DNA from: a virus | Length of the DNA: 32,084 nt | Reading direction: 5' to 3' (one strand) | IMG/VR virus record: IMGVR_UViG_3300032282_006223 | Location: 1 to 32,084 of that record | Part shown: positions 1 through 30,455 of the stretch, piece after piece | Layout: each line of letters starts with the position of its first letter | How positions within the stretch are numbered: the stretch's first letter is position 1 | Translations under genes and position numbers: made by a program | The notes under the pieces: generated by a model | What the model was told of the DNA's origin: nothing | The model's database searches: none | What the model saw: only the letters and a program-made list of their open reading frames with translations

Positions 1-64
1 AAAAGATTTTGGAGAAATGTCTAAAAACGAGATAGACTTATATATGGGAGAATTGAATGGATAA
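1..64 (+). CDS. 3' end of an upstream gene (partial, function unknown)
   Basis: Reading from base 2, an open frame runs in from the left edge and ends with TAA at 62-64, encoding about 20 residues ending in MGELNG. The stop lies 8 bases inside the next gene (ATG at 57), the same tight overlap seen at the other junctions here, which supports it as the true end of the preceding operon gene. Too little sequence is visible to assign a family. An internal ATG at 17 exists but would give only a 15-residue peptide. Confidence 0.4.
   Translation, partial: KDFGEMSKNEIDLYMGELNG
46..50 (+). promoter_or_regulatory. Shine-Dalgarno site of the PD-(D/E)XK nuclease gene
   Basis: GGGAG lies 6 bases before the ATG at 57. 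It is one of the few well-spaced purine-rich sites in the window and supports 57 as the start. Most other genes here have little or no such site. Confidence 0.55.
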
Positions 65-980
65 AAAAGAGGTCTATCTTTCTGCGTCTAGGATAAAAGC
101 TTTAGAGACTTGTTCTTGGTCTTACTATTGTAAATATCATCTTAATGTTCCTGAAGAGTCTAACTCAGGCGCGAAAAGAGGTACAATTTGCCACTTAGTA
201 TTTGAAGTTTTATTAAATCCAAGACATAAGAAGCATCAAAAATTAATTACCTCTAATCAAGATGCTTTTAGTTCTCCAGCTATATATAGATTAGTTTTAA
301 AGAACGCTAAAAGAGAAAGTATTGACAATGATGATGATCTAACTCTTATCAATAAAATGATTGTCGTTGGATTAAATACTGACTTTTATCCAAAGGGAGG
401 TTCAACATTAGAGCCAGAATTCGAATTTAAAATAGAAGGTGATGGGTACAAAGCTAAAGGATTTATTGATCTACCTATTATTTATAAAAAAGATAAAGTA
501 ATTAAAATTAGAGATTATAAATCTAGTAAAGCAAAATTTAAAGGAGATGAATTATCCGCTAATGTGCAGGCTATGCTTTACTCTATCGCCTCACAAAAAT
601 ACTGGCCTGAATATAAACCAAAGGTAGAATTCATCTTTTTAAGATTCCCTAAAGAACCTGTACAGCCTGTTGAATTTAACGAAGATCAATTGAAGGGGTT
701 TGAGTACGCTTTAAAATATGTATATGAAAAGGTAGTAAATTTTTCTGAAAAAGATGCCAAAGAAAATTATGCCGCCGATTGTCAAAAAAGCAAATGGCTT
801 TGTCAGGCAGGAAAGTGGGTTTGCCCTTTCAAAAATCCCTTGTTTTTTTATGGGGTATATGATATAGAAGGGAATCTAGTTAAGACTTTCTTGCACCTCG
901 AAGACGCAAAGAAAAGTAAAATAAACGACTCTTACATAATTAAAAAATTTAAATATGATGGATGCCCTCGCTGGAAGTAA
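57..980 (+). CDS. PD-(D/E)XK superfamily nuclease with four-cysteine (AddB/Cas4-like) Fe-S signature
   Basis: Predicted RecB/Cas4-type DNA exonuclease of 307 aa, probably acting in phage replication or recombination. The core motifs are visible in order: an N-terminal SxSRIKxxETC helix (residues 9-19), GTICH with catalytic-type H46, GFID with D138, DYK at 153-155 (the D-xK pair), and QAMLY at 171-175 (motif QxxxY). Cys19 together with C242, C249 and C256 gives the one-plus-three cysteine arrangement known from AddB and Cas4, where it binds a 4Fe-4S cluster. It overlaps the upstream gene by 8 bases, and its end overlaps the annotated start of the PHP gene. No helicase or Cas1/Cas2 gene is nearby, so a CRISPR role is not supported. 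The family call is firm; polarity and partner are unknown. Confidence 0.8.
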   Translation: MDKKEVYLSASRIKALETCSWSYYCKYHLNVPEESNSGAKRGTICHLVFEVLLNPRHKKHQKLITSNQDAFSSPAIYRLVLKNAKRESIDNDDDLTLINKMIVVGLNTDFYPKGGSTLEPEFEFKIEGDGYKAKGFIDLPIIYKKDKVIKIRDYKSSKAKFKGDELSANVQAMLYSIASQKYWPEYKPKVEFIFLRFPKEPVQPVEFNEDQLKGFEYALKYVYEKVVNFSEKDAKENYAADCQKSKWLCQAGKWVCPFKNPLFFYGVYDIEGNLVKTFLHLEDAKKSKINDSYIIKKFKYDGCPRWK

Positions 981-1737
981 GGTGTTACCCTTTTTTAAAA
1001 GTCATTACAGTATAGGCAAATCTATTCTAACACTTGATAAATTTGGATCTTCAAGTGAAGATGGATCAACTTCGATTATTGATTTAGCTAAAAATAATAA
1101 TCTAAAGCAAGTATTTCTTGTAGAAGAGAACATGACTTCTTTTCTTGATGCTTTTACTAATTTTAACAGTATTAAGATTCCATTTTTTTATGGTCTTAGG
1201 ATAGAGCTATGTCCTGATATAAATGAAAAATCTGAAGAATCAATTAGTAAATCCAGTAAAATTATTATTTTTGCAAAGAATGGACAGGGATATAAAAATC
1301 TAATCAAAATATTCAGCCTAGCCTCCACTGAGGGATTCTATTATGTTCCTAGAATAGATGAAAAGAGTTTGGCATCACTATGGAATGACAATGATTTAGT
1401 TCTTTGCGTTCCATTTTATGATTCTTTTCTCTTTAAGAATGTAATGACTTATTCTATTTGTTGCCCTGAATTAAGTTTTACAAAACCAATTTTTGCCTTA
1501 GAAGACAATAATCTACCATTCGATCAAATTGTAAAAGAAAAAGTAGAAAAATACTGTTCTCATAAGTTTGAGACTATCAATGTAAAGAGTATCTATTATA
1601 ATCTAAAAGAAGATTTTAAAGCGTATTTAACTTTTCGTTGCATCAATAATAGAACCACGTTAAATAAACCGAATTTAGAGCACATGTCTAGCGATGAATT
1701 TTCTTTTGAAAGCTGGAAACAAGCGAATAACCTATGA
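955..1737 (+). CDS. DNA polymerase III alpha subunit, N-terminal PHP domain only (split DnaE)
   Basis: A 260-aa protein resembling roughly the first 260 residues of bacterial DnaE. The opening FFKSHYSIGKSILTLD matches the first PHP strand, GQGYKNLIKIFSLAS matches the DnaE 'N-xGY-NL-LLS-A' helix, and RCINNRTTLNKP near the C-terminus matches the 'R-GTTLDDP' end of the PHP domain. The usual HxH metal ligands are missing (FxK occupies that place) and the TDH position reads VEEN, so PHP nuclease activity is probably lost and the role structural. The polymerase core is in the separate gene at 2339. The annotated ATG overlaps the nuclease gene by 26 bases; a GTG at 982, just past the nuclease stop and preceded by GGAAG, is a reasonable alternative start. 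The stop TGA overlaps the exonuclease ATG (ATGA). Confidence 0.75.
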   Translation: MMDALAGSKVLPFFKSHYSIGKSILTLDKFGSSSEDGSTSIIDLAKNNNLKQVFLVEENMTSFLDAFTNFNSIKIPFFYGLRIELCPDINEKSEESISKSSKIIIFAKNGQGYKNLIKIFSLASTEGFYYVPRIDEKSLASLWNDNDLVLCVPFYDSFLFKNVMTYSICCPELSFTKPIFALEDNNLPFDQIVKEKVEKYCSHKFETINVKSIYYNLKEDFKAYLTFRCINNRTTLNKPNLEHMSSDEFSFESWKQANNL

Positions 1738-2372
1738 TGGAAAACTTACTTAGATTCGATTCTGAAAAAATTTATACTTTTATAGATTTCGAAACAGAAA
1801 ACCTTTGTTTAAATTTCACAAATAATCGACCATGGCAATGTGGTATGATTAAAGTAAAAGGACAAGAAGTTATAGATTCTGCAGATATTTATATAAAATG
1901 GGATAAACCAATAAATGTAAGCAAAGAAGCTGCAGTAATGACTAGATTTGATCCTTATAAATACGCAAAAATAGCAATACATTCCTCAGAAGCCTTTAAA
2001 ATAATTAAAGAATGGCTAGAAAATTGCGATTACATCGGCGGCCATAACGTTTTGAACTTTGATATCTATTTAATAAAAGAATTTTATCAACTCTACAATA
2101 CTAAATGGCAACATCTAGTAGAAAAAGTGATTGATACAAACTGTTTGGCAAAAGGATTAAAATATAATATTCCCTATTCCAAAGATTTAAAACTCATTGA
2201 ATATCAATACAAAATAGTAAATGAGCGCAGGAAAGGGATAAAAACAAACTTGACCAGTCTGGGCAAGGAGTATAACATTGATCACGACTACTCTACCTTG
2301 CATGACGCTTTAAACGATTTACATTTGAATATTAAAATATGGAACAAACTAAAATTCCAAATAGCAATTTAA
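1734..2372 (+). CDS. DEDDh 3'-5' exonuclease (DnaQ/epsilon-like proofreader)
   Basis: Predicted proofreading exonuclease of 212 aa. All DEDDh residues are present: D18 and E20 in FIDFETE (Exo I), D110 in GHNVLNFD (Exo II), and H190 with D195 in HDALND (Exo III). The gene sits between the two halves of the DnaE-like polymerase, overlapping the PHP gene by 4 bases (ATGA) and the polymerase gene by 34 bases, so all three are likely co-translated. With the PHP domain lacking its ligands, this protein is the obvious proofreader of the replicase. No clear beta-clamp-binding QxxLF motif is visible at the C-terminus. The family assignment is strong; physical association with the polymerase is inferred from gene order. 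RNase T-like repair use is an alternative. Confidence 0.85.
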   Translation: MMENLLRFDSEKIYTFIDFETENLCLNFTNNRPWQCGMIKVKGQEVIDSADIYIKWDKPINVSKEAAVMTRFDPYKYAKIAIHSSEAFKIIKEWLENCDYIGGHNVLNFDIYLIKEFYQLYNTKWQHLVEKVIDTNCLAKGLKYNIPYSKDLKLIEYQYKIVNERRKGIKTNLTSLGKEYNIDHDYSTLHDALNDLHLNIKIWNKLKFQIAI

Positions 2373-4927
2373 ATTTCATTAATTCTTTTCAAAAGTATGA
2401 TCTTGGACTTCATGGTCTAAGAATGCCTATCTTTGAAATCGATCAAAGATTCAAAACAAAACTAAATCTTCCTCAAGAAACTTCAAATTTCGAGTTTTTA
2501 AAGGGTCTTGCCAGAGAAGGATTTAAAAGGCTTAATCTTGAAAAAAATAGCGAACTTTATAAAAAATATACAGATCGCGCAAAGTATGAATTAGAAATTC
2601 TTAAAGAATTAGACTTCATTGACTATATTATATTAATTTGGGATGTAGTTAATTATTGTCGCGAGACAAATATTCCAACCGGACCCGGAAGAGGTTCGTG
2701 CGCAGGTTCTTTGATTTTGTTCTTAATCGATGTAACAAAAATTGATCCTATTAAATACGATTTGTTCTTTGAAAGATTTATTTCAAAAGCAAGAGCGAAG
2801 AAAACAGTAATAGATGGAGTGACATATTTTGATGGATCTTTGTTTCCTGATGTTGACCTAGATATCTGCTATTATAACAGGTCAAAAGTTATTTCTTATC
2901 TAGAAGAAAAATTTAAAGGAAAAACCTCAAAAATTCTAACTCTTAACACATTAAGCTCAAAACTTTGTATTAAGGAATCCGGCAAAACAGTCTCTGAAAA
3001 ACAAGAGGCAGAGATGAATGATGTGTCATCTTATATTCCAAAACTATTCGGACAAGTTAAGAGTCTTGAAGATGCGGTAAAAGAATCTGAAAAGTTCGCG
3101 AATTGGACTAAAGATAATGAAAATGTCTTTAAAATAGCTTTAAAGCTTCAAAATTTAATTAAAAATAAAGGCGTCCATCCTTCTGGACTTTTGCTTTCTC
3201 ATTCACGTTTAGAGGATTCTTGTCCAACTGAATTGTCTTCTGACAAGCAGATAGTCTCAAGTTATGAGATGAATAATGTAACGCTTTATAACGTTAAACT
3301 AGATCTGCTTGGTTTAAGAGGCGTTTCTGTCGTAGATGATGTTTGCAAATCACTGGGAATAAAATACGAAGACATTGATGTTAATGATAATTTTATTTAT
3401 CAACAATTACAAGATTTAAGAAATCCTCATGGTCTTTTCCAAATCGAAGCAGAAACTAATTTTAAAGTTTGTCAAAAAGTAAAGCCAAAGAACTTAGAGC
3501 AATTAAGCGGAGTATTGGCGCTAGCAAGACCGGGAGCGCTGCAATTCATCGATCAATATGCGAACTACACTAATAACAATCATTATGAAAGCATTCATCC
3601 TTTCTTTGACGATATTCTTGGCGTTACTGGAGGTGTTTGTTTATATCAAGAGCAATTGATGAAGATGGTGTATAAAGTTGGATTTACACTAGATGAAGCA
3701 GAAATTGTTCGCCGTTGCGTAGGCAAAAAGAAAGTTGAGGAGATGAAGCAATGGGAGCAAAAAATTAAAGATAAGATCACAGAACAAAAACTAGATCCTC
3801 GAATCGGAGAAATCCTATGGAAAATCGCAAATGATTCTGCGAACTATCAATTTAATAAGTCTCATTCTGTAGCTTATGCTGCTCTTGCTGCTATATCTAT
3901 TTATCTAAAGTTTAAGTATCCTCAACAGTTCTTCTTGTCTTTGCTAAAGATGAGTAAGCATGAGCCGGATCCAATCGGAGAAATTTCAAAAATAGAAAAA
4001 GAACTATCTTATTTTAACATCAAGCTTCTGCCACCTCATCTTTTAAAATCAAAAGAAGAATTTTCAATAGAAACAAATAATATTCGTTTCGGACTACTTT
4101 CAGTTAAAGGAATTAGCGAAAAGACTATTAAAGCAGTTAATGAATTTCGAGGAGAGTTTAAAAATAAGTTTGATATTTTTGAAACAGCATCTCAGGTTAG
4201 TCTAAATATAGGAGTTCTTTGCGCTTTGATTCAAGCAGGAGCTTTAGATGGAGATTTTAAACAGTCTAGAAGTAAATTAGTATACGAAGCTCAATTATGG
4301 AATTTATTAACCGAAAGAGAAAAAGTTAACGCTAAATTATTTGCGGAACAATTCGAGTATGATTTAGTTAAAATAATTATGCATCTAACTCAATCAAAAG
4401 ATGCAAAATCTAAACCTTATATTAAGGACTCAAGATTAGATACTTTAAGGAATAAAGCAGAACCATATAAGAAAATTTATGAAATCAATAGTAAATCAGA
4501 AAGTTTTGCTAATTGGTTTTATGAAAATTCTATTATTGGATACAGTGTTAAAAATACTCTACAACAAGTATTTGCTTCTAAGAAAGACGATTTAGTATAT
4601 ATTAAAGATATTGAAAGATTTCCAGAAAAAGATTACGTATCTTTTATTGGAACCATCAAAGAATGCAAAGCCGGAGTCTCTAGAGAAAAGAAAACTAGAT
4701 ACTTTAAAATGCAAATTTCTGACGAAACAGGATCTATTAACACAATGATATTTTCAGAGAATATAGATCACATGCAAGCTCTTAATAATAAAATGCCTGC
4801 CGAAGAGGATATAGTTATTATTATCGGTCAAAAGTTTGGCGATTCTGTTTTTGCCAAGACTGTAGCTATTCAAACTCATAAAGTTTATACAAAATTATCT
4901 CAACTAAAAGCAGAGAAAAATACTTGA
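2339..4927 (+). CDS. DNA polymerase III alpha subunit, polymerase core with HhH and OB domains (split DnaE)
   Basis: Replicative family C polymerase (862 aa) lacking the PHP domain. The N-terminus (about 15-65) corresponds to the DnaE segment just after PHP. The palm shows GPGRGS (115-120), PDVDLD with catalytic-type D171 and D173, and KLDLLGLRG with D322, equivalent to E. coli D401, D403 and D555. GVHPSG at 278-283 is the conserved fingers motif, and LYQEQ and FNKSHSVAYA follow in normal order. About 15 extra residues separate FERF from PDVDLD. The HhH region contains VKGISEKT, and the C-terminus (about 765-845) is OB-fold-like; no tau-binding tail is evident. PHP gene plus this gene total 1122 aa, close to E. 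coli DnaE (1160 aa). The start overlaps the exonuclease gene by 34 bases without a clear ribosome site. Confidence 0.93.
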   Translation: MEQTKIPNSNLNFINSFQKYDLGLHGLRMPIFEIDQRFKTKLNLPQETSNFEFLKGLAREGFKRLNLEKNSELYKKYTDRAKYELEILKELDFIDYIILIWDVVNYCRETNIPTGPGRGSCAGSLILFLIDVTKIDPIKYDLFFERFISKARAKKTVIDGVTYFDGSLFPDVDLDICYYNRSKVISYLEEKFKGKTSKILTLNTLSSKLCIKESGKTVSEKQEAEMNDVSSYIPKLFGQVKSLEDAVKESEKFANWTKDNENVFKIALKLQNLIKNKGVHPSGLLLSHSRLEDSCPTELSSDKQIVSSYEMNNVTLYNVKLDLLGLRGVSVVDDVCKSLGIKYEDIDVNDNFIYQQLQDLRNPHGLFQIEAETNFKVCQKVKPKNLEQLSGVLALARPGALQFIDQYANYTNNNHYESIHPFFDDILGVTGGVCLYQEQLMKMVYKVGFTLDEAEIVRRCVGKKKVEEMKQWEQKIKDKITEQKLDPRIGEILWKIANDSANYQFNKSHSVAYAALAAISIYLKFKYPQQFFLSLLKMSKHEPDPIGEISKIEKELSYFNIKLLPPHLLKSKEEFSIETNNIRFGLLSVKGISEKTIKAVNEFRGEFKNKFDIFETASQVSLNIGVLCALIQAGALDGDFKQSRSKLVYEAQLWNLLTEREKVNAKLFAEQFEYDLVKIIMHLTQSKDAKSKPYIKDSRLDTLRNKAEPYKKIYEINSKSESFANWFYENSIIGYSVKNTLQQVFASKKDDLVYIKDIERFPEKDYVSFIGTIKECKAGVSREKKTRYFKMQISDETGSINTMIFSENIDHMQALNNKMPAEEDIVIIIGQKFGDSVFAKTVAIQTHKVYTKLSQLKAEKNT

Positions 4928-4940
4928 TAAAACAGGTTTT

Positions 4941-4961
4941 TCTGGAGAAAATATATCCAGA
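4941..4961 (+). promoter_or_regulatory. Inverted repeat over the ribosome site and start codon of the ssDNA-binding protein gene
   Basis: TCTGGA (4941-4946) and TCCAGA (4956-4961) are perfect complements around a 9-base AT-rich loop. The left arm contains most of the only Shine-Dalgarno-like sequence (GGAG, 4944-4947), and the right arm includes the A of the ATG. The GGAG-to-ATG spacing (13 bases) is longer than usual. As RNA, the hairpin could mask initiation; T4 gp32 is a precedent for translational autoregulation of a phage SSB. A 6-bp stem in AT-rich DNA could also be chance. Confidence 0.35.
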
Positions 4962-5536
4962 TGAATCTTCAATTCTACAAGGGAAATAAAAAAATCACCG
5001 GTACCGCATGCTCCTTTCAAGCGAAGGGAGCTTCTTTATTTGTAAACTTCATTAAGCAGCATTCTTGGAACGAAGCAAAAAATCTTGGTTCGTTTAGAGA
5101 AAACGCTAAAAATCCTGAAAAGTCTGGAGTAGTTAAGTTTACCCCAACAGAAGCAGCAGGTATTGTAGATGCTATCGACAGAAACGCTGAATATAGTTAT
5201 TATCATACAACAAAGAATGGCAATTCAATGGGTAAGTTTTGCCCTTATATTAGAGAAGGTAAGCAAATTGGATATTCATTTAATGCTACCAAGGAAAACA
5301 AAGGAGATACCGTAAATAAAGTTGGATTTTTAATTGGATTTTCTTTTGCTGAAGCTATTTTAGTTAAGCAGTTTTTACTTAGATTTATCTCTGAATCTTT
5401 TGTAAAGATCGAGGAAAATAAGGAAAATCCTGAAACTCCTGATGCTCAAGAAGTAAAAAAGCCTATTTATAACAAGGTTCAAATTAATCAGTCGCAATCA
5501 GAAGCCGAAGCTCAGGCCGAAGAATTAATCTTCTAA
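4961..5536 (+). CDS. Probable single-stranded DNA-binding protein with SSB-type acidic C-terminal tip
   Basis: A 191-aa protein without an unmistakable family signature. The central part (about 55-140) alternates beta-strand-like stretches and helices: KFTPTEAAGIVDAI, a YYHTT strand, a KFCPYIREGKQIGYSF strand pair, then FSFAEAILVKQFLLRFI. This is reminiscent of PC4/whirly-type ssDNA-binding folds. The C-terminus is low-complexity and acidic and ends EELIF, resembling the SSB tip (acidic residues followed by a hydrophobic dipeptide ending in Phe) that docks partner proteins. Its place between the replicative polymerase and recombination genes fits an SSB. The gene is preceded by a hairpin and overlaps the next gene by one base (TAATG). 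Function is an inference from tail, context and general fold; an unrelated replication accessory protein is possible. Confidence 0.5.
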   Translation: MNLQFYKGNKKITGTACSFQAKGASLFVNFIKQHSWNEAKNLGSFRENAKNPEKSGVVKFTPTEAAGIVDAIDRNAEYSYYHTTKNGNSMGKFCPYIREGKQIGYSFNATKENKGDTVNKVGFLIGFSFAEAILVKQFLLRFISESFVKIEENKENPETPDAQEVKKPIYNKVQINQSQSEAEAQAEELIF

Positions 5537-7443
5537 TGCGTAAGAAAAAGATAGTTATCCAAACTGATTGGTGTTTATCCAAAACAGGATTTGGAAGAGC
5601 AGCGAAGGAACTATTATCGTATTTACATAATACAGGTAAATACGAAGTAGTTCACTATTGTTGCGGAATCCAAAATGGTAATCCTCTTCTTCGCAAGACA
5701 CCTTGGAAAAGTATAGGATCAGTACCGACAGATCAAAATGAAGTCAACAGAATTAATGCTGATCCTTCATTAGCAAGAGATGTTAGTTATGGATCATATT
5801 ATATTGATGAGATAATTAAAACAGAAAAGCCAGACATTTGGATTGGCGCTCAAGATCCGTGGGCTTTTGGTCAATACTATAATAAGAAGTGGTATAAAAA
5901 TATTACTTCTTTATTATGGGTAACTTTAGATTCTCTTCCTATTTATGATGAAGCTTTAAATCAAGCTAAGAATTCTTCCCAATACTGGATATGGAGTGAT
6001 TTTGCGACAAAAGAACTGAATAAAGTTAATATTAACAACGCAAAGACAGTACATGGTCCAGTAAACTATTCTAATTTTGAAGCTTTAAGTGCTTTAAAAA
6101 AGAAAGAGTTACGCGAAAAGTACGGTTTACAAAATTCATTTATAGTAGGATTCGTCTTTAGAAATCAACTTCGTAAATCAGTCCCAAATTTAATAGAAGG
6201 ATTTAGAGATTTTACAAAAAATAATCCATCCGTTAAAAACGCAAAACTTCTTCTTCATACTCATTGGAGCGAAGGTTGGGATATTTTTAAACTAGCAGAT
6301 GAATATAAAGTTTCAAGAGAAGATATTCTAACGACTTATATTTGCAATAAATGCAAGAATTATTTTATATCTTCATTTAAGGGGCAAGAAGTAAAATGTG
6401 GAGTTTGCAATACAGAAAAAAGCTGCTCTACAACAAATACTAATTGTGGCGTTTCTGAAAAGCAATTGTGTGAAATTTATAATTTGATGGATGTTTATTG
6501 CCATCCTTTTACTTCTGGAGGACAAGAGATTCCAATTCAAGAAGCTAAATATTGTGAATTAATAACATTAGTCACTAACTATAGTTGTGGCGAGGATATG
6601 TGCGTTCCAGAGGCTGCTTCTTTAGCTCTTGAATGGTCAGAATATAGAGAACATGGAACACAATTTAGAAAAGCTTCCACTTATCCATCTTCTATCGCTA
6701 AACAATTATTAAAAGTTTATAATATGCCCGATTCTGATAGAAAAGAAATGGGCAGAAAAGCAAGAAAATGGGCTTTGGAAAATTATTCAGTAGAAGTTAT
6801 AGGCAAAATCTTTGAAGAATACTTAGATTCTATTCCATTTACATCTTATGATTTTTCTCTAAAAGAAGAAGAAAAAAATCCTAATGCTGTTATCCCTGAT
6901 ATATCTGATAATTCTAAATGGTTGATTTACTTATATCATCATATATTGAAAATGACTTCAGTTGATGAAAAAGACGAAGGTCATAAGCATTGGATGAAAG
7001 CCTTAGCAGAGGGCAAAACCAGAAAAGACATAGAAGCTTATTTTCGACAAGTAGCCACAGAAGAGAATAAAAAAAATCAAAAAATAGATTTTGAAGATAT
7101 CTTAGGTAAGGATGATAAAGGAAAAAGGCTCCTATTCATAATGCCAGAAAGCATAGGAGATGTATTTTTATCTACATCTTTACTTCCTTCAATAAAAGAA
7201 ACTTATCCAGAATACAATATTTATTTTGCGACTAAAAGAGAAAATTTTGCAATACTAGAAGCTAATCCATATATTTATAAAATTGTTGAGTATATACCTC
7301 AAATGGATAATCTTCTATGGCTTGAAGGCTATGGCAATCACCAAGGATATTTTGAAATAGCATTTCTGCCTTACATCGGAACGCAAAAAATGCTTAACTA
7401 TATTCACAACGGTAAAGATAAAATAACTTTTGATTTAAAATAA
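5536..7443 (+). CDS. Composite glycosyltransferase: GT4 with zinc-ribbon insert, DUF4214-like linker, N-terminal half of GT9
   Basis: A 635-aa multidomain protein. Residues 5-435 form a GT-B fold, GT4-type transferase: KTGFGRAAKELLSYL (16-30) is the N-domain glycine loop, FVFRNQLRKSVPNLIEGF (206-223) the C-domain start, and SGGQEIPIQEA (327-337) the EX7E-like donor motif, of which only the second Glu (E336) is present. Four cysteines (C270, C273, C288, C291) in CxxC pairs form a zinc-ribbon-like insert in the C-domain. Residues about 465-512 (YHHIL...GHKHW...EGKTRKDIEAYF) resemble DUF4214. From 531 on, LLFIMPESIGDVFLSTSLL is the start of a GT9 heptosyltransferase-type domain, stopping after about 105 aa where the second Rossmann domain should begin. 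That half is the next gene. The substrate could be virion protein, host glycan or modified DNA; nothing in the sequence decides. Confidence 0.75.
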   Translation: MRKKKIVIQTDWCLSKTGFGRAAKELLSYLHNTGKYEVVHYCCGIQNGNPLLRKTPWKSIGSVPTDQNEVNRINADPSLARDVSYGSYYIDEIIKTEKPDIWIGAQDPWAFGQYYNKKWYKNITSLLWVTLDSLPIYDEALNQAKNSSQYWIWSDFATKELNKVNINNAKTVHGPVNYSNFEALSALKKKELREKYGLQNSFIVGFVFRNQLRKSVPNLIEGFRDFTKNNPSVKNAKLLLHTHWSEGWDIFKLADEYKVSREDILTTYICNKCKNYFISSFKGQEVKCGVCNTEKSCSTTNTNCGVSEKQLCEIYNLMDVYCHPFTSGGQEIPIQEAKYCELITLVTNYSCGEDMCVPEAASLALEWSEYREHGTQFRKASTYPSSIAKQLLKVYNMPDSDRKEMGRKARKWALENYSVEVIGKIFEEYLDSIPFTSYDFSLKEEEKNPNAVIPDISDNSKWLIYLYHHILKMTSVDEKDEGHKHWMKALAEGKTRKDIEAYFRQVATEENKKNQKIDFEDILGKDDKGKRLLFIMPESIGDVFLSTSLLPSIKETYPEYNIYFATKRENFAILEANPYIYKIVEYIPQMDNLLWLEGYGNHQGYFEIAFLPYIGTQKMLNYIHNGKDKITFDLK

Positions 7444-7444
7444 T

Positions 7445-8605
7445 ATGCATATCTTAGAGCAGTACGCTTTGAATAGCGGCGTTAAAATTAAGCAGCCATT
7501 TATTTACGAAAAGTTTTTTCCATTAACTTTTGATAAGTATATTTCTTTTCATCCTGCAACAAAACCTTCTAAAACTTATGATCTATGGCAAGAAGTTATT
7601 AATTTGATTTTTCCTTATTTAGAAAAAAATAATATCAAGATAATTCAAATAGGAGAAAAAGAAGATAAATCGTATTCTGGAGCGATGAATTTACTTGGTT
7701 TGACAAATATTAATCAAACTGCATATATTTTAAAAAATGCCCTTCTTCATGTCGGAGCTGATAGCTTTCCAACTCATGTCGCTTCCTATTACGATAAGAA
7801 AATCGTTAGTCTTTACTCTAATAATTATATTTCCTGCGTAAAACCGTATTTTGGCAATCCACAAAATCAAATTTTGCTTGAACCCACGAGAACTACAAAA
7901 CCTTGTTTTTCTTTTCATGAAACGCCAAAGACGATAAATAAAATAAAACCTGAAATTATCGCCAAAAATATTTTAAAATTATTAGATATAGAAAATTCTA
8001 TAAATATAGACAGTATTTATTTTGGAATGGAATATAATCAGCCTAAGCTTGAATTAGTTCCAAATATGAACATAGATCCAAGGCAGTATAATTCAACAAA
8101 TATTATAGTGAGAATGGATCTAGAATTTAATGAACAAATATTAAGAAATCAATTAAAAATTTGCGATTGTGTTATTTTCACAGATAAATCGATTGATAAA
8201 CAATTATTAATTGATAATAAAAGTAGAATAGCAAAAATAATCTACGAAATCAAAGAAAATAACGATATAGATTTCGCTAATTTCTTGCAATTTAATAGTA
8301 TTCCATATCAGCTTTTCACGTATTTAAAAGGAGATAGTATAGAAAAAATTAAATTAGATTACATAGATCAAGAACAAATTATAGAAATAAATGCAGATTT
8401 AAAAACAAAAATTAAAACTGAAAATATATATAATTTATTCTATAGATCAAATAAAAAAATTCTAAGCAACGGAAAAATATTTTTAAGCGTAAGCTCTTAT
8501 AAAAAAGATATTTCTGCCGCTCAAAATACAGAAGCGGTAATCGATTGCCCTGAGTTTTGGAAAGAGTTAGAGAATTTCTATATTTTCAGGGTTGACAAAA
8601 ACTAA
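7445..8605 (+). CDS. GT9-type glycosyltransferase, C-terminal half plus unknown C-terminal region
   Basis: A 386-aa protein whose first about 180 residues are the nucleotide-sugar-binding half of a GT9 (ADP-heptose:LPS heptosyltransferase-like) enzyme: ISFHPAT (33-39), IIQIGEKED (66-74), LLGLTNINQTAYILKNA (83-99), and GADSFPTHVAS (104-114), the counterpart of the GT9 'G-DTG-MHLA' motif with H111. It starts one base after the stop of the upstream gene (TAATATG), in a different frame, with no ribosome site, and its N-terminus continues the GT9 alignment where the upstream protein stops. The pair therefore looks like one GT9 split at its interdomain hinge, with coupled translation. Residues about 185-386 match nothing I recognise. 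A recent frameshift cannot be excluded, but both frames are otherwise intact. Confidence 0.65.
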   Translation: MHILEQYALNSGVKIKQPFIYEKFFPLTFDKYISFHPATKPSKTYDLWQEVINLIFPYLEKNNIKIIQIGEKEDKSYSGAMNLLGLTNINQTAYILKNALLHVGADSFPTHVASYYDKKIVSLYSNNYISCVKPYFGNPQNQILLEPTRTTKPCFSFHETPKTINKIKPEIIAKNILKLLDIENSINIDSIYFGMEYNQPKLELVPNMNIDPRQYNSTNIIVRMDLEFNEQILRNQLKICDCVIFTDKSIDKQLLIDNKSRIAKIIYEIKENNDIDFANFLQFNSIPYQLFTYLKGDSIEKIKLDYIDQEQIIEINADLKTKIKTENIYNLFYRSNKKILSNGKIFLSVSSYKKDISAAQNTEAVIDCPEFWKELENFYIFRVDKN

Positions 8606-9321: not shown

Positions 9322-12300
9322 TTAAATTCCCATTCCCGGAGAATTAGAACCAGCACTGGCAAGCCCTTGTATTTCTACACTTTTAGAACTTGAAGATCCC
9401 AAGCCTTTGAATAAAGAAGCTTCAGTGTTAATAGCTTCAATTCTAAGTTTTATATATTTAGAATCTTCTGGATCATTAAATACTACATATTCTCCACTGT
9501 GAGGAACTTTTGATGAAAATTCTATATCTATAAATTTTCCATTTTTAGATGGCTTAAATGATGTCAATATTATTTGCTTTCCAATGTATCCAGTTGGATA
9601 CAAAATAGAAGTTTTTACTTGAGCATCTAATAAATTAAAATCTGCGTCAGAACTAGAATAAAATTGAGAATAATTAATTTTAAACTTTTTCTCCTCCATA
9701 AATGAACCAGTAAGAATTATATCTGTTATTCTTGAATAATTATTAGGATTTTGAATTACTAAAAATGGAAAGTCTGTAGTTTCATATATTGATCCATAAT
9801 TAGAAAGTTTAAAGTTTAATTTTTCTCCAACTACAAAATCATTGTTTAAAGGAAAAGTTGTTGATGTAGTATAATAAGCATAATATTTAGAGCCATCATT
9901 TGCTTCAAGCGAATAATTAGTTCCAGAAAACAAAAGAGCACTAGGTGTTCTTTGGATAAATCCATTAGCCGGATTAGAAATAGTAATATTATTGCCTGAC
10001 CAGTAATTTTCTAAAGGGTCATAAGCATTTGTATTTATAACTATACCTGTTACGGATCCAACATAAGGAGGAAGAAAAGAAACTAAAGCTGTTATACTTG
10101 GAGTTCCTCCAGCTCCTGCAGCTAAAGTTACAGAAGGATTAGAAGTATAACCTTTTCCTCCGCTATGAATAATGTATCCCGTTATATTTTGATTAGCAGC
10201 ATTGAGTAAAGTAATAGAAGCTTTTTGTTTTTCTAATTGGAAAACAGTTGGGAAATTTTCTAGTATTCTATCATTAGATTCAGAAAAGAAATCTACTCCA
10301 GTTAGATATCTAACGCCCTCGCCAACAAAAGAAATAACAGATCCATCAAATCCACTGACTTGAGAAGTGCCATCTAATCGATAAGTGAGTCTATTGTTTA
10401 GGTAAGCGTCATTAATTCTAATAGTCGGAATGTAATTAAAGCGGCCTGATACTGGATATATTTCATTTAAGTAAGTAGTCAAATAAAACATTCCAGAAAC
10501 TGGTCTTACATCTTCTACATCTTTTCTATGTACATTCTTTCCAGCGATAGAAGGTGGATAGAATTGTATTTTATTAAAGTCTTTATAAATTAAATTAGAG
10601 TTAACAGAAGAAGTGTCTATATCTATTAAAATTCCGGTCTTAAAATCTGGACGCAAATCTTCAGGATTAGACAAAGGACTTCCTGATTTTCCTATCAACA
10701 AAGTACCTGCGCCAATAAATCTTATTCCTGTGACGTAATTTAAATTAGATCCACTTAAAGTTATTAAAGAATTTATAGATCCTGTTGATATATTAATTCC
10801 TGAATTTAAAATTTTTGGAGCGGAAATAGTTATAGTGTTAAATAATTTATCAGGATCGAAACTATTTCTTTGGAAAAACACTTCTCCACTTCCTATAAAA
10901 CCATCTAAGTTTAAGGAGCCATAATCAGCAAAATTTAAATTTGTACCTATACCAACAGGATCTGTACCGCTATAAATTAAATCAAAATCAGGAAAACTAG
11001 AATAAGAAGCAACAGAAACATTTAGTTGACCCGATAAAACTGAATATCCTGTATAAGGTTGATAGAACCCAGTTCCAGTTAGAGTACTAATATCAATAAT
11101 TGATAAATTCTGCGCAATGATATACTGGCCTGTTTTTTTGGTTAAGTGATTATAGCCGCTAATATATAGATCTCTAGATTGTAAAACATTGGCATTTACT
11201 CCTGTAATTACAATTGGATCTTTTAACATATATCCAGTTGTATTTACTCCTGTAATAGTAGTACTTGGATAGAATATACGAGAATATCCAGCTAGTTCAC
11301 CAGTCGTTCCTGATGTCCCTGAGTAAAAGAATTTAAATGCTGAAGATTTTAAGTCTCTGGGTACTGTAACTGTTACTCCGGTTCCAGAAATACTTGAAAC
11401 ATTTTCAAATTTAACTAAATCATTATTTACTCCTAATCCATAAAATTCTAATCCGCTCAAATTATTTCCAGATAATAAAATTGTATCTCCATAATAAGCT
11501 GAAGAAGGTATAATTTTATTAATTGAAGGATTTAAAAATATTAAGCTTTCTTCACTTAAAACAGAAGTATATGGATTAATTAATCTGATCGGTCCATCTG
11601 TTATATCATAAACATTAGGTATGTAAAAACTTATATTACTTATATCTTGAGAAGCAAATGAATTAATAGTTTTACTCATTCCATCTTGCGAGCCTAATAA
11701 AATAGAAGTAACTGTATTTAAAAATTTTCCAGATACATTTATTAATGATCCGGCCATACCGGTAGTTGGAAAAAATCCATCAATACTTAAATTACCGCTT
11801 CTAATATTAAATCCACTTGGATAAGTATAATTGAAATAATCAGAACTTAGATTTAAAAAATCTCCGCTTTGAGCTAAGTCAGGCATTTTAAACACAATAG
11901 CTTGTTCAAATTCTGAACCGCTATTAACAATATCAAATCCCGTTGCAGCATAGCCACCTACGCTTAAAGTTTTAATGTAATACAGATCAGTGCCGAAACC
12001 AGTTAAATATTCTCCTTGGATAAATTGACCTGAATAACCAGAGCAAAATCCAGTTATAACAGGAGTTTTTAAAAAGGTAAAAGTTTTATCAAATCCTCCA
12101 GTTACCTGAGAATAGCTATTATCTAACAAAATTTTACTTTTTCTAATAGAAGACAAGTTAGGAGTATTAATTCTTAGATATCCAAAATCTCTTATATTGT
12201 CATCGACAAAGCCTACGCTAGCATGTAATAAAAGTTCGGTATCAATATTATTTCTTGCTCTTCTATCTGGTTGAAAATCTTGATCTTGGTATGGATTTTT

Positions 12301-18159: not shown

Positions 18160-19290
18160 ATGGCTACTCAAGAACAAATAAAAAATTCATCAGCAAAAAT
18201 AAATCAAGAGTTCTTTTCTTTAGAACCATCTTCTATTATTTCATTATTTGAAATTGATTTATCAGATATAGGTTTTGAAGCCAGTAATCAATTTATTATC
18301 AACTTAAGAGATATCCAAATTAGCCTTCCCGGAGGAACAGATATTTTTAATAAAGAATTTAATTATAGAATAATTAGACTACATAATAATTTAAAACTTA
18401 TTAGAAATGTAATTTATTGGAATAATGTTCCATATTTACCAGCCCCTATAAATGTAGAAGGTTTTGAATTAGCATCGAAAGGTGTTTTTCCAAAACCAAA
18501 AGTATCAATAGCTTTTTCAGATGATATGCTTGATGTATTCTCTTTATTTAGAGGGACTATAAATTTTGGAGATTTAATCGGAGCTAAATTTACTAGAAGA
18601 AGAACTTTTGCAAAATTTTTAGATAGCAAAAACTTTTATCAAACTTCTAATTCTAGTGCTCCATTAAGCTCTGACTATGCTTCTATACCAGAAGGTTTTG
18701 ATCCAGATCCTAATTGCGAACTTTCTAAGGATGTTTATTTCTTTGACAGAAAATCTTCTGAGAATAAAAACTCCATCCAATTTGAATTATCTAGTTCAAT
18801 AGATTTAGATAGGGTTAAATTACCAAGAAGAAGAGTATTAAGTTATGTTTGTCCTTGGCAATATAGAGGGGAGGGATGTTTGTATGAATATCAAAGTAGA
18901 CTAAACGAAAATATTCATGGAACTACTACTCCAATTCCAAATAAAAGTGACACTAGTGGAATAATCGCGCCTGCATGTGCAGCAGAAAATGATGAATTAA
19001 TAAAAGATTTAATTACTCCTACATCATTATCTAGTAATCCAAATGAATGGCAGTTAAATAAAACTTACGTAAAAGGAGACGTTGTTTTCATAACTAAAAA
19101 GAATATTAATTTTTACTTTGTAGCGAAAAGTGATGTTCCATTTAATATGGCACCGCCTAATGGAAATTATTGGATTGCCGATCAATGTTCAAAAACGATA
19201 AAAGGATGCAAAATAAGATTTGGAGAAAATAATCCTCTTCCATTTGGGGGATTTTATGGAGTATCAAATTATCAAAGAGGACAAAGATGA
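18160..19290 (+). CDS. gpL-like minor tail protein with Fe-S cysteines and inserted CBM5/12-like module
   Basis: A 376-aa homologue of lambda gpL (232 aa), a tail-tip protein. The C-terminal signature is clear: VCPWQYRGEGCLYE (C231, C240), CSKTIKGCKIRFG (C343, C350), and LPFGGFYG (360-367). The spacings C-x8-C and C-x6-C equal those of lambda gpL, whose four cysteines bind a 4Fe-4S cluster. Between the pairs lie 102 residues instead of about 22, including NEWQLNKTYVKGDVVF ... FYFVAKS ... YWIADQ (about 295-342), a CBM5/12-like pattern as at the gpM N-terminus. The open frame extends upstream to a TTG at 18139 inside gpM, but the ATG at 18160, one base past the gpM stop and after GAAGAGG, is the better start. 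The stop overlaps the next ATG (ATGA). Confidence 0.88.
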   Translation: MATQEQIKNSSAKINQEFFSLEPSSIISLFEIDLSDIGFEASNQFIINLRDIQISLPGGTDIFNKEFNYRIIRLHNNLKLIRNVIYWNNVPYLPAPINVEGFELASKGVFPKPKVSIAFSDDMLDVFSLFRGTINFGDLIGAKFTRRRTFAKFLDSKNFYQTSNSSAPLSSDYASIPEGFDPDPNCELSKDVYFFDRKSSENKNSIQFELSSSIDLDRVKLPRRRVLSYVCPWQYRGEGCLYEYQSRLNENIHGTTTPIPNKSDTSGIIAPACAAENDELIKDLITPTSLSSNPNEWQLNKTYVKGDVVFITKKNINFYFVAKSDVPFNMAPPNGNYWIADQCSKTIKGCKIRFGENNPLPFGGFYGVSNYQRGQR

Positions 19291-20042
19291 TTAGTGATGA
19301 ACTAAAATTAAAAATAAAAAAAGAATCCAACAAATACAGCCCACAGGAATGTTGCGGACTTTTGATTATTAAAGATAGTATTTTAGATTTATTTCCTTGT
19401 CAAAATAATGCTTATGATAAAATAAATGAATTTTCTATAAATCCTAAAGATTATTTAAAAGCGTCACAAAATGGAAAAATTGTTGGAATTTATCATTCTC
19501 ATTGCGTTCAAGAAAATTCTTTTTCTGAATTAGATAAACAAATAAGCCACAAATTAAATCTAAAAAATATCGTTTATATTGAGAAAAAAAACGAATTTGA
19601 AGAATACTCTCCAGAAAATTATTACAGCAAATATATTGATAAAAATTTTGTAATTGGCAACTCTGACTGCCTATCGATTATTGAAGATTATTATAATGAA
19701 GAATTTGGTATTAAAATATTCCATCATGAAAGATCTCATGGATGGGATTTAAACTATAAAAACTTCATTGAAGAAAAGCTTAAAAATATTAATTTAAAAA
19801 ATGAATTTGATCAATTCATAGAAAAAGAAAATTGCATTAAAATTAATTCGATAGAAAGCGCTAAAAAACATGACATTATAATTTTTAAATACTTAGATAA
19901 TTATCCATCCCATTTTGGAATTTATTTAGCAAATGATTATATATTGCATCAACCAAGAGATAGAAAATCATTGATTGAAAAGATGACTAACGCAGAAAAA
20001 AGAAGGATTTACTGTTTCGCAAGGCACAAAGAATTATGCTAA
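19287..20042 (+). CDS. gpK-like tail-tip peptidase, JAMM + NlpC/P60 (copy 1)
   Basis: A 251-aa bifunctional protein of the lambda gpK family. The N-terminal JAB/JAMM metalloprotease-type domain has E21 (QECCGLL), H70 and H72 (YHSH), S80 and D83, an intact HxH-x7-S-x2-D zinc motif. The C-terminal NlpC/P60 domain has C128 in GNSDCLSIIEDYY, H209 in PSHFGIYL, and a second His at 221 (ILHQ), consistent with a Cys-His peptidoglycan hydrolase or tail-processing site. It overlaps gpL by 4 bases and the following paralogue by 7 bases. In lambda-like phages gpK sits between L and I and is needed for tail-tip assembly and probably cell-wall passage. Assignment is strong. Confidence 0.88.
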   Translation: MISDELKLKIKKESNKYSPQECCGLLIIKDSILDLFPCQNNAYDKINEFSINPKDYLKASQNGKIVGIYHSHCVQENSFSELDKQISHKLNLKNIVYIEKKNEFEEYSPENYYSKYIDKNFVIGNSDCLSIIEDYYNEEFGIKIFHHERSHGWDLNYKNFIEEKLKNINLKNEFDQFIEKENCIKINSIESAKKHDIIIFKYLDNYPSHFGIYLANDYILHQPRDRKSLIEKMTNAEKRRIYCFARHKELC

Positions 20043-20776
20043 ATGAAATTTTACAAAATGAAATTATAGCACATGCAGAATCTAGTAGTTATGAAGTCTG
20101 CGGTTTTATAAAAAAAGAAGGCGAAGTTTTTTCCGTAGAGAAGAAAGAGAATTTATTGAATTCAGCCACAGAATTTATCATGGAAGGAGCATTCGAAAAT
20201 ATCTATGCTTATTATCATTCTCATATAAATTATGATCAAATTTCTAAAGCTGACGAAATAGTTTCTGAAAGATTAAAATTACCATGTATTGTTTATAATA
20301 AAAGCACAAAAAAATTTCATCAATATAATCCAAACGGTATAAAAATTAAATATACAGAAAGACCTTTCGTTTTGGGGTTTGCTGATTGTTTATGGCTTGT
20401 AAGAGATTATTACCGTCATGATTTAAATATAAATTTAATATCAGAGCAAGAAATAGCAAAAAATAATGTCTCTGAGGAAGAATATAGTCTTTTGCTTAAA
20501 AATAGATGCGTTAATGAAGCTAATTTATTAAAAAATGAAAATAATTACTTAAAAAGGTACTTCGAATTAAATGGTTTTCATGAGGTATCTAATATGAAAA
20601 AAAACGATATCTTAATATCAAGAACTCAAGAGTATAAATTTCCAATTCATTGCATGATTTATCTTGGTAAAGATGCAGTTTTACACCATCCCGGAGATGG
20701 CATATCTAAAGTCGAAACTCTTTCTAGCCAGAAGAAAAAATGGGTAAAATATATAATGAGACATAATCTATTATGA
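20036..20776 (+). CDS. gpK-like tail-tip peptidase, JAMM + NlpC/P60 (copy 2)
   Basis: A 246-aa second member of the gpK family, directly after copy 1. The JAMM part has E20 (YEVCGF), H61 and H63 (YYHSH), S70 and D73, with the HxH-to-Ser spacing one residue shorter than in copy 1. The NlpC/P60 part has C118 in GFADCLWLVRDYY, H205 in FPIHCMIYL and H217 in VLHHPGDG. The two copies align end to end (FVIGNSDCLSIIEDYY against FVLGFADCLWLVRDYY) but have diverged strongly. Both look catalytically complete, so this is not an obvious pseudogene. Copy 2 overlaps gpI by 4 bases (ATGA). Separate substrates or a heteromeric tip are possible. Confidence 0.85.
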   Translation: MLNEILQNEIIAHAESSSYEVCGFIKKEGEVFSVEKKENLLNSATEFIMEGAFENIYAYYHSHINYDQISKADEIVSERLKLPCIVYNKSTKKFHQYNPNGIKIKYTERPFVLGFADCLWLVRDYYRHDLNINLISEQEIAKNNVSEEEYSLLLKNRCVNEANLLKNENNYLKRYFELNGFHEVSNMKKNDILISRTQEYKFPIHCMIYLGKDAVLHHPGDGISKVETLSSQKKKWVKYIMRHNLL

Positions 20777-29624: not shown

Positions 29625-30455
29625 ATGAATGATTTTTTATTCTCTTATGGAGAAGAATTTTTTTATTCTAATAATTTATCAGATTGGTCAAGCTTAAACG
29701 CAGGATCAAAAGTTAATATATTAGAAGACTCAGAAGAATATACAGTAGTTAAAAATGACATAATTCATTTTAATAAAAAGTTCACTATTAAAGATAAAAA
29801 TACTATAACAATAAATAATTGCAGCAAAGAAACTGTACTAGCGGGAGATACTCTAACTTTTGAATTTGATTATTATTCTTTAGTATTAATAAATGAAATT
29901 CTAGAAAAAGGACAAGGCTATAGGGTGGGTGATATAGTGAAATTAGAAGAAAATAGTTTATTCAGCAAAGTTATAAATGAAAAAGATTGCGCTAAATTTA
30001 TTATTAAAAAAATAGACACACTCGGTGGTATATTAGAAATTGAACAGATAAGCCAAGGTATTTACATAAATGATTTTAGTGATGGATCATTAGAAAGCCA
30101 GCATGGTAAAGGGGCTAAACTTAGTTTCTTTTTAAAGAAATCAAATAAAAAACTAAAGTCCTTTTTTACTATTATCAATGTCAATCAGAATAATAATGAA
30201 ATAAATATTACAACTGAAGAAAATATCGACATTAATTTAAAGCAAGGAGATTTCTCTGCGTCTCGACATAGAATAACGGTTAATAAAAAAATTGCTAAAA
30301 ATAACTTTTATCAGCCTTTTTTTTTGGTAGGCAGAGAAACTTCGCATCTTAAGTTAAAGTTTGCTAATAAAGATAATTTTACTCAAATATATAATTATAA
30401 TCTTCTATTAATAGATAAAGAATTGCATCAATTAAGATCTTCCACTAGCAAGTAG
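29625..30455 (+). CDS. Putative tail structural protein with GxGY motif, last gene of the tip operon
   Basis: A 276-aa beta-rich protein of unknown family. The N-terminal part (about 1-85) alternates short strands around LNAGSKVNILEDSEEYTVV and KKFTIKDKNTITINNC. At about 90-107 is INEILEKGQGYRVGDIVKLE, the GxGY-xxGD-xv motif found in the neighbouring protein and in the 1833-aa structural protein, followed by IIKKIDTLGGILEIEQIS, the usual 'v-G-l-xI-v-x-G' partner. No catalytic motif, membrane segment or signal peptide is visible. The start lies two bases after the upstream stop (TAAAGATG). Its 3' end overlaps the convergent tape measure gene by 24 bases, and it is the only gene here clearly ending in TAG. 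Confidence 0.45.
   Translation: MNDFLFSYGEEFFYSNNLSDWSSLNAGSKVNILEDSEEYTVVKNDIIHFNKKFTIKDKNTITINNCSKETVLAGDTLTFEFDYYSLVLINEILEKGQGYRVGDIVKLEENSLFSKVINEKDCAKFIIKKIDTLGGILEIEQISQGIYINDFSDGSLESQHGKGAKLSFFLKKSNKKLKSFFTIINVNQNNNEINITTEENIDINLKQGDFSASRHRITVNKKIAKNNFYQPFFLVGRETSHLKLKFANKDNFTQIYNYNLLLIDKELHQLRSSTSK

What the first reader, a model, noticed from the sequence alone, without database searches (positions are those of the whole stretch)
955..4927. Replicative DnaE split into PHP and polymerase genes with a DEDDh exonuclease gene between
The two polymerase pieces (260 + 862 aa) join to about normal DnaE length. The break falls between the DnaE 'GTTLDDP...' end of PHP and the 'ERCN-L' segment before the palm, and the interposed gene has all DEDDh residues. 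The genes overlap by 4 and 34 bases, so co-translation of a three-protein replicase is likely. PolC also carries an exonuclease associated with its PHP domain, but within one polypeptide, so this looks like a gene-level parallel. I do not know whether it has been described.
Basis: partly seen in the sequence, partly recalled or inferred. Interest (0 to 1): 0.72.

Follow-up and report, generated by a model that had tools for sequence, protein, structure and literature searches.

The report
Phage replicase built from three genes
A large, uncultured group of water-borne phages makes its main DNA-copying enzyme from three separate genes (a worn-out nuclease domain, an error-correcting nuclease and the polymerase) where almost all known relatives use one or two, so a domain thought to be a fixed part of this enzyme has become a free-standing subunit.

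Summary
Window 955-4927 encodes a stand-alone PHP domain (260 aa), a DEDDh 3'-5' exonuclease (212 aa) and a PHP-less DnaE polymerase core (862 aa), overlapping by 4 and 34 bases. It is no local accident: all 132 distinct related loci that hold both PHP and POL have EXO between them, none fused. In nine long relatives (118-203 kb) these are the only PHP, EXO and DnaE found, with no family A or B polymerase. Catalytic residues of EXO and POL are essentially invariant. All PHP metal ligands are lost, whereas at least 77 of 80 of the nearest intact phage DnaEs keep the PHP HxH motif and have no such exonuclease gene nearby. An active PHP thus seems to have been traded for a DEDDh proofreader. AlphaFold models of read-through chains place PHP on POL as in ordinary DnaE, and PHP with EXO as a rigid pair. 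Best reading: a three-subunit C-family replicase in which an inactive PHP bridges exonuclease and polymerase. It works like E. coli alpha-epsilon and PolC, but with PHP as its own subunit. PHP/Pol splits also exist in Gordonia Terapin-like phages (active-type PHP, no exonuclease between). No published description was found in the papers held.

The parts
57..980 (+). PD-(D/E)XK (RecB/Cas4-like) nuclease gene, conserved upstream neighbour; not part of the polymerase
   Evidence: Pfam PDDEXK_1 2.3e-19; same place in nearly all relatives whose upstream flank is held
955..1737 (+). Stand-alone PHP domain of DnaE, catalytically dead
   Evidence: Pfam PHP 6.8e-12; matches Taq alpha 49-251; metal ligands absent in 141 sequences
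1734..2372 (+). DEDDh 3'-5' exonuclease, probable proofreading subunit
   Evidence: Pfam RNase_T 2.5e-9; DEDDh conserved in 138 sequences; best PDB sequence relative the PolC exonuclease 2p1j; fold match of the relative's EXO to epsilon 2ido, TMt 0.82
2339..4927 (+). PHP-less DnaE polymerase core: palm, thumb, fingers, HhH, OB fold
   Evidence: Pfam DNA_pol3_alpha, finger, HHH_6; catalytic Asp 173, 175, 322 invariant in 119 sequences
4961..5536 (+). Conserved downstream gene of unknown function (191 aa)
   Evidence: no Pfam, PHROG or NCBIfam match; follows POL in most relatives

Best explanation
The three genes encode one replicase. POL is a DnaE-type (family C) polymerase without its N-terminal PHP domain. 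The PHP gene product is that missing domain, made as a separate protein; it has lost all its metal ligands and acts as a structural bridge. It is inferred to bind POL where the PHP domain of an ordinary DnaE sits, and to hold the DEDDh exonuclease, which proofreads. Ancestrally, an intact DnaE with an active PHP nuclease was broken at the PHP/polymerase border, an exonuclease gene settled in the break, and PHP activity decayed because proofreading had been replaced. Shown: gene content and order, conservation, active-site states, single copy, clade structure. Inferred from models: assembly. Inferred from family knowledge: the activities. The order of the evolutionary steps is a guess.
For: Order PHP-EXO-POL in 132 of 132 distinct loci, never fused, EXO never missing; the other 20 loci are cut by contig ends except L180, whose POL lies several kb further down on the same strand. 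118 full-length POLs fall in 26 clusters at 68% identity. Nine long genomes: one PHP, one EXO, one DnaE, no PolA or PolB. DEDDh conserved in 138 (one gap at D195); POL catalytic Asp in 119/119; no PHP metal ligands in 141. Nearest intact phage DnaEs: about 1095 aa, PHP in the same ORF, HxH kept in at least 77 of 80, no family EXO within the up to 6 kb held on each side. Loss of PHP ligands goes with a separate exonuclease in bacteria (PMC3666897). AlphaFold, PHP-linker-EXO-linker-POL(1-529) of L048: pLDDT 80, pTM 0.76, only linkers disordered; TMt 0.66 against E. coli alpha (2hnh, 910 aa), above the 0.58 that POL alone could reach, so PHP must share the canonical placement. PHP-linker-EXO alone: pTM 0.75 with a 120-residue disordered linker, against about 0.47 that I estimate for two unoriented domains.
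Against: No biochemistry. The complex was modelled as read-through single chains of a relative (L048), not as separate chains, and no negative-control pair was run; the pTM argument is my own arithmetic. In many relatives the genes are separated by other genes, so co-translation is not general. EXO has no C-terminal tail like that by which epsilon binds PHP. Host or unrecognised phage proteins may also take part; no beta clamp was found (PF02767).
Confidence: 0.8

Rival explanations
1. The exonuclease is not the proofreader but serves another task (repair, primer removal, host DNA degradation) and lies between the pieces only because the operon holds replication genes.
For: In many relatives unrelated genes (for example a cupin) also sit between PHP and EXO. 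The exonuclease family is broad: RNase T, ExoI and TREX-like folds match too.
Against: EXO is never missing in 132 loci; PHP is dead throughout, leaving no other recognised proofreader beside the polymerase; best sequence relatives are PolC and epsilon exonucleases; the PHP-EXO model is rigid.
Confidence: 0.1
2. PHP no longer binds POL and has a new role alone, for example as a regulator or exonuclease partner; POL works without it.
For: Split genes; variable spacing; catalytic residues lost.
Against: PHP is kept wherever POL is, in single copy; the model places it in the canonical DnaE position; PHP regions near 1-30 and 210-230 are predicted with more confidence when POL is present.
Confidence: 0.06
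3. The pieces are rejoined into one polypeptide by protein trans-splicing or frameshifting.
For: Related POL genes are fractured by split inteins at another site; cyanobacterial DnaE is split by an intein (PMC3919608).
Against: No intein-like sequence at the PHP C-terminus, EXO ends or POL N-terminus; in relatives the genes can be hundreds of bases or more apart with other genes between.
Confidence: 0.02
4. Sequencing or assembly error, or a decaying gene.
For: Single environmental contig.
Against: Same arrangement in 132 distinct loci with invariant active sites.
Confidence: 0.01

Closest known systems
E. coli Pol III core (DnaE alpha + DnaQ epsilon)
   Same: DnaE-type polymerase, inactive PHP, separate DEDDh exonuclease; epsilon binds the PHP domain (PMC3666897, PMC3919608)
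   Different: PHP is part of alpha; dnaQ lies elsewhere; epsilon has a C-terminal PHP-binding tail that EXO lacks
PolC (Gram-positive replicase)
   Same: PHP, DEDDh exonuclease and polymerase belong together; EXO's best PDB sequence match is the PolC-type exonuclease 2p1j
   Different: PolC is one polypeptide with the exonuclease inside PHP; POL here is DnaE-type
Gordonia Terapin-like phages, e.g. Madi gp64/gp65
   Same: PHP and polymerase are two adjacent genes, both deposited as DnaE-like DNA polymerase III
   Different: PHP keeps HxH (HTHTTFS), no exonuclease between, and its polymerase falls outside the family clade
Intact phage DnaE, e.g. Moorella phage MTATph1 and the approx. 1095-aa IMG/VR group
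   Same: homologous polymerase; in MTATph1 a gene annotated CRISPR/Cas system associated protein lies just upstream
   Different: one gene with active-type PHP, no family exonuclease nearby
Split-intein DnaE of cyanobacteria
   Same: DnaE encoded in pieces
   Different: broken in the fingers and rejoined by trans-splicing; no intein in the window

Membership tests
C-family polymerase, DnaE type | three catalytic aspartates of the palm | tested here: met
   D173, D175, D322 in 119/119
C-family polymerase, DnaE type | best profile match DnaE rather than PolC | tested here: met
   NCBIfam PRK05673 450.8 bits, no PolC-type model listed for POL; PDB Taq and E. coli DnaE far above PolC
C-family polymerase, DnaE type | PHP domain at the N-terminus of the same polypeptide | tested here: not met
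   PHP is a separate ORF in the window and all relatives
DnaQ-like DEDDh exonuclease | D-x-E, D, H-x4-D motif | tested here: met
   conserved in 138 sequences, one gap at the last D
DnaQ-like DEDDh exonuclease | 3'-5' exonuclease activity | not testable with these tools
   needs an assay
E. coli-type epsilon | C-terminal PHP-binding tail after the exonuclease domain | tested here: not met
   136 of 138 family ORFs stop exactly at the end of the profile, the other two 1-2 residues later
Active PHP nuclease | ligand motif HHDHEH[C/H]DH | tested here: not met
   HxH, DH, E, YH, C and DxH positions all replaced in the alignment (motif from PMC12926913)
PolC | single polypeptide with exonuclease inside PHP | tested here: not met
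   three ORFs
Three-subunit complex | physical association of PHP, EXO and POL | tested here: inconclusive
   confident single-chain models; no separate-chain model, no experiment

The most novel reading that the evidence does not exclude
A widespread phage clade carries a replicase class in which PHP is an obligatory free-standing, non-enzymatic subunit forming a PHP-exonuclease proofreading module that docks on the polymerase from outside, so that proofreading could in principle be exchanged or controlled by subunit supply.
Probability: 0.45. Interest if true: 0.75.

Novelty: new variant of a known kind. Interest (0 to 1): 0.62.

Why it matters
The PHP domain is described as present in all C-family polymerases and as a stabilising scaffold (PMC3666897), yet its role is hard to test because it cannot be removed cleanly. 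Here nature has separated it. A purified PHP, EXO and POL set would show directly what PHP contributes to activity, stability and proofreading. The clade also records one route by which an intrinsic PHP proofreader was replaced by a DEDDh exonuclease, and shows that C-family replicases are common in aquatic phages with large genomes, against the older view that only a handful of phages have them (PMC3919608).

Tried and rejected
Assembly error or decay: rejected by 132 loci with invariant active sites. Intein at the PHP/POL break: no intein-like sequence. Second, intact DnaE or other polymerase elsewhere: none in nine long genomes (which are not proven complete). An isolated phage with this arrangement: none in 50,697 phage records; EXO of the window had no tblastn match, and a distant relative's EXO found only weak matches to Microbacterium phage DnaQ-like proteins. 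Near-identity DNA search: no match. PHP relatives in bacterial genome assemblies: nine MAG contigs from unrelated phyla, all with the PHP-EXO-POL set, best read as phage contigs in bins. One apparent exception, L180 without POL next to EXO, was followed: POL lies several kb downstream after inserted genes on the other strand. EXO placement against epsilon or PolC could not be read because Foldseek aligns in sequence order and coordinates are not given. Papers: no description of a separate PHP subunit with exonuclease in the library held; Kazlauskas and Venclovas 2011 is not held.

Full report
What is there. The window is a 32,084-base virus record from IMG/VR with lambda-like tail genes. At 955-4927 lie three overlapping genes on the + strand: PHP (260 aa), a DEDDh exonuclease EXO (212 aa) and POL (862 aa). 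Domain searches confirm each. Profile matches to solved DnaE structures show that PHP and POL together cover one DnaE from the PHP domain to the OB fold, with the break at the PHP/palm border. A PD-(D/E)XK nuclease gene lies upstream and an unknown gene plus two glycosyltransferase-like genes downstream.

Is it conserved. Of 152 loci with distinct sequences, 132 hold PHP and POL, and all 132 have EXO between them; no two of the three are fused. Of the other 20 loci, 19 are cut by a contig end; in the last (L180) POL lies several kb further down on the same strand, behind inserted genes. The 118 full-length POLs fall into 26 clusters at 68% identity, so this is not one strain seen many times. 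Spacing varies: 58 of 139 PHP-EXO and 51 of 137 EXO-POL gaps are 20 bases or less. The other gaps often hold further genes, most often a small acidic protein between EXO and POL (70 loci) and variable cargo, including a cupin, between PHP and EXO. The overlaps seen in the window are therefore not the conserved feature; the order is.

Single copy. Nine long relatives (118-203 kb) each have exactly one PHP, one EXO and one DnaE, a DnaB-type helicase, no family A or B polymerase and no recognisable beta clamp. Their completeness is not known. The general Pfam RNase_T model found EXO in only three of nine; the family profile found it in all nine.

Active sites. EXO's DEDDh residues are present in 138 sequences (one gap at the last D); POL's three aspartates in 119/119. 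In PHP the ligand positions of the active-site motif are all replaced across 141 sequences. In contrast, the nearest intact phage DnaEs (80 IMG/VR loci) carry PHP in the same ORF and keep HxH in 74 by pattern and three more by eye (L254, L258, L262); one (L319) has lost it, one (L253) is truncated and one (L257) carries an N-terminal exonuclease fusion and was not scored. None has an ORF matching the EXO profile in the flanks held. The family forms one side of a fully supported branch (SH-aLRT 100) on a long stem; the rooting is by midpoint only and cellular sampling is thin. The Gordonia Terapin-like split lies outside it, so the PHP/Pol border has probably been broken at least twice.

Structure. 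In relative L048 the three genes are in one frame, so a chain read through the stops gives PHP-linker-EXO-linker-POL(1-529), 1200 aa. With a 76-row alignment AlphaFold2 gave mean pLDDT 80 and pTM 0.76; only the two linkers were disordered. Foldseek found DnaE structures first; the TM-score normalised on E. coli alpha 2hnh (910 residues) is 0.66. POL(1-529) alone could give at most 529/910 = 0.58, so PHP must be superposed too: PHP is predicted in its ordinary DnaE place although it is a separate protein. A PHP-linker-EXO chain without POL gave pTM 0.75 with a 120-residue disordered linker. I estimate that two domains without a fixed orientation would give about 0.47 at this length. PHP segments around residues 1-30 and 210-230 are less confident without POL, which fits a POL interface. 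Limits: single-chain construction, a relative rather than the window proteins, no negative control, no coordinates to inspect.

How it most likely works. POL copies DNA; dead PHP completes the polymerase fold and carries EXO; EXO removes mismatched 3' ends. This is the division of labour of E. coli alpha-epsilon, in which loss of PHP ligands goes with a separate exonuclease (PMC3666897), but with PHP cut loose. EXO lacks the epsilon tail, so the contact must differ in detail. A plausible history is fission of a PHP-active DnaE, arrival of an exonuclease gene in the break and decay of PHP catalysis; the order of steps is not shown.

Known or new. Separate proofreaders, exonucleases fused to DnaE (PMC12926913) and PolC's built-in exonuclease are known. 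PHP/Pol splits exist unremarked in deposited Gordonia phage genomes. I found no report of a free-standing PHP subunit with an exonuclease gene between PHP and polymerase; the paper library held is incomplete, so this is absence in what I could search.

Noticed in passing
L027 9480-9895; L066 10957-12245; L044 10894-11832; L227 about 10100-10547; L241 10108-10534: In five relatives POL is fractured a second time by a split-intein-like element between FNK and SHS (window POL K507/S508), a few residues from the cyanobacterial DnaE intein site as I recall it. N-inteins begin with Cys (seen in four), C-inteins end in SN before Ser. In L066 about 890 bases separate the halves; in L044 the N-part tail looks like an HNH/NUMOD endonuclease (by eye). 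These replicases would come from four genes.
   Followed up: partly
between EXO and POL in about 70 related loci, e.g. L175 8403: A conserved small acidic protein of about 73-112 aa is encoded between EXO and POL in many relatives but not in the window; no family match. A possible fourth replicase component.
   Followed up: partly
between PHP and EXO in relatives, e.g. L168 7753, L051 3656, L140 6152; and EXO-POL in L180: The gaps are slots for variable cargo genes, including a cupin; in L180 a block of several kb on the other strand separates EXO from POL.
   Followed up: partly
L257 5194-9588: A phage ORF of 1465 aa with a DEDDh-looking exonuclease fused in front of DnaE.
   Followed up: no
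L074 (Alicyclobacillus phage KKP_3916) 6911-13525: A DnaE homologue in at least four ORFs, all annotated hypothetical; probably introns or inteins.
   Followed up: no
window 19287-20042 and 20036-20776: Tandem, 29% identical copies of a lambda gpK-like JAB/NlpC-P60 tail protein; Pfam finds the JAB domain only in the first.
   Followed up: partly
window 5536-8605: Two glycosyltransferase-like genes (group 1 and family 9) follow the replicase; the first is conserved behind POL in most relatives.
   Followed up: no
window 30432-32084, - strand: A long ORF running off the window end with weak tape-measure-like PHROG matches, on the strand opposite to the tail genes.
   Followed up: no
L239-L247: Family loci turn up in MAGs labelled Woesebacteria, Lokiarchaeota, Verrucomicrobiales, Flavobacteriaceae and others, probably binned phage contigs; the three Flavobacteriales MAGs hint at one host group.
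   Followed up: no
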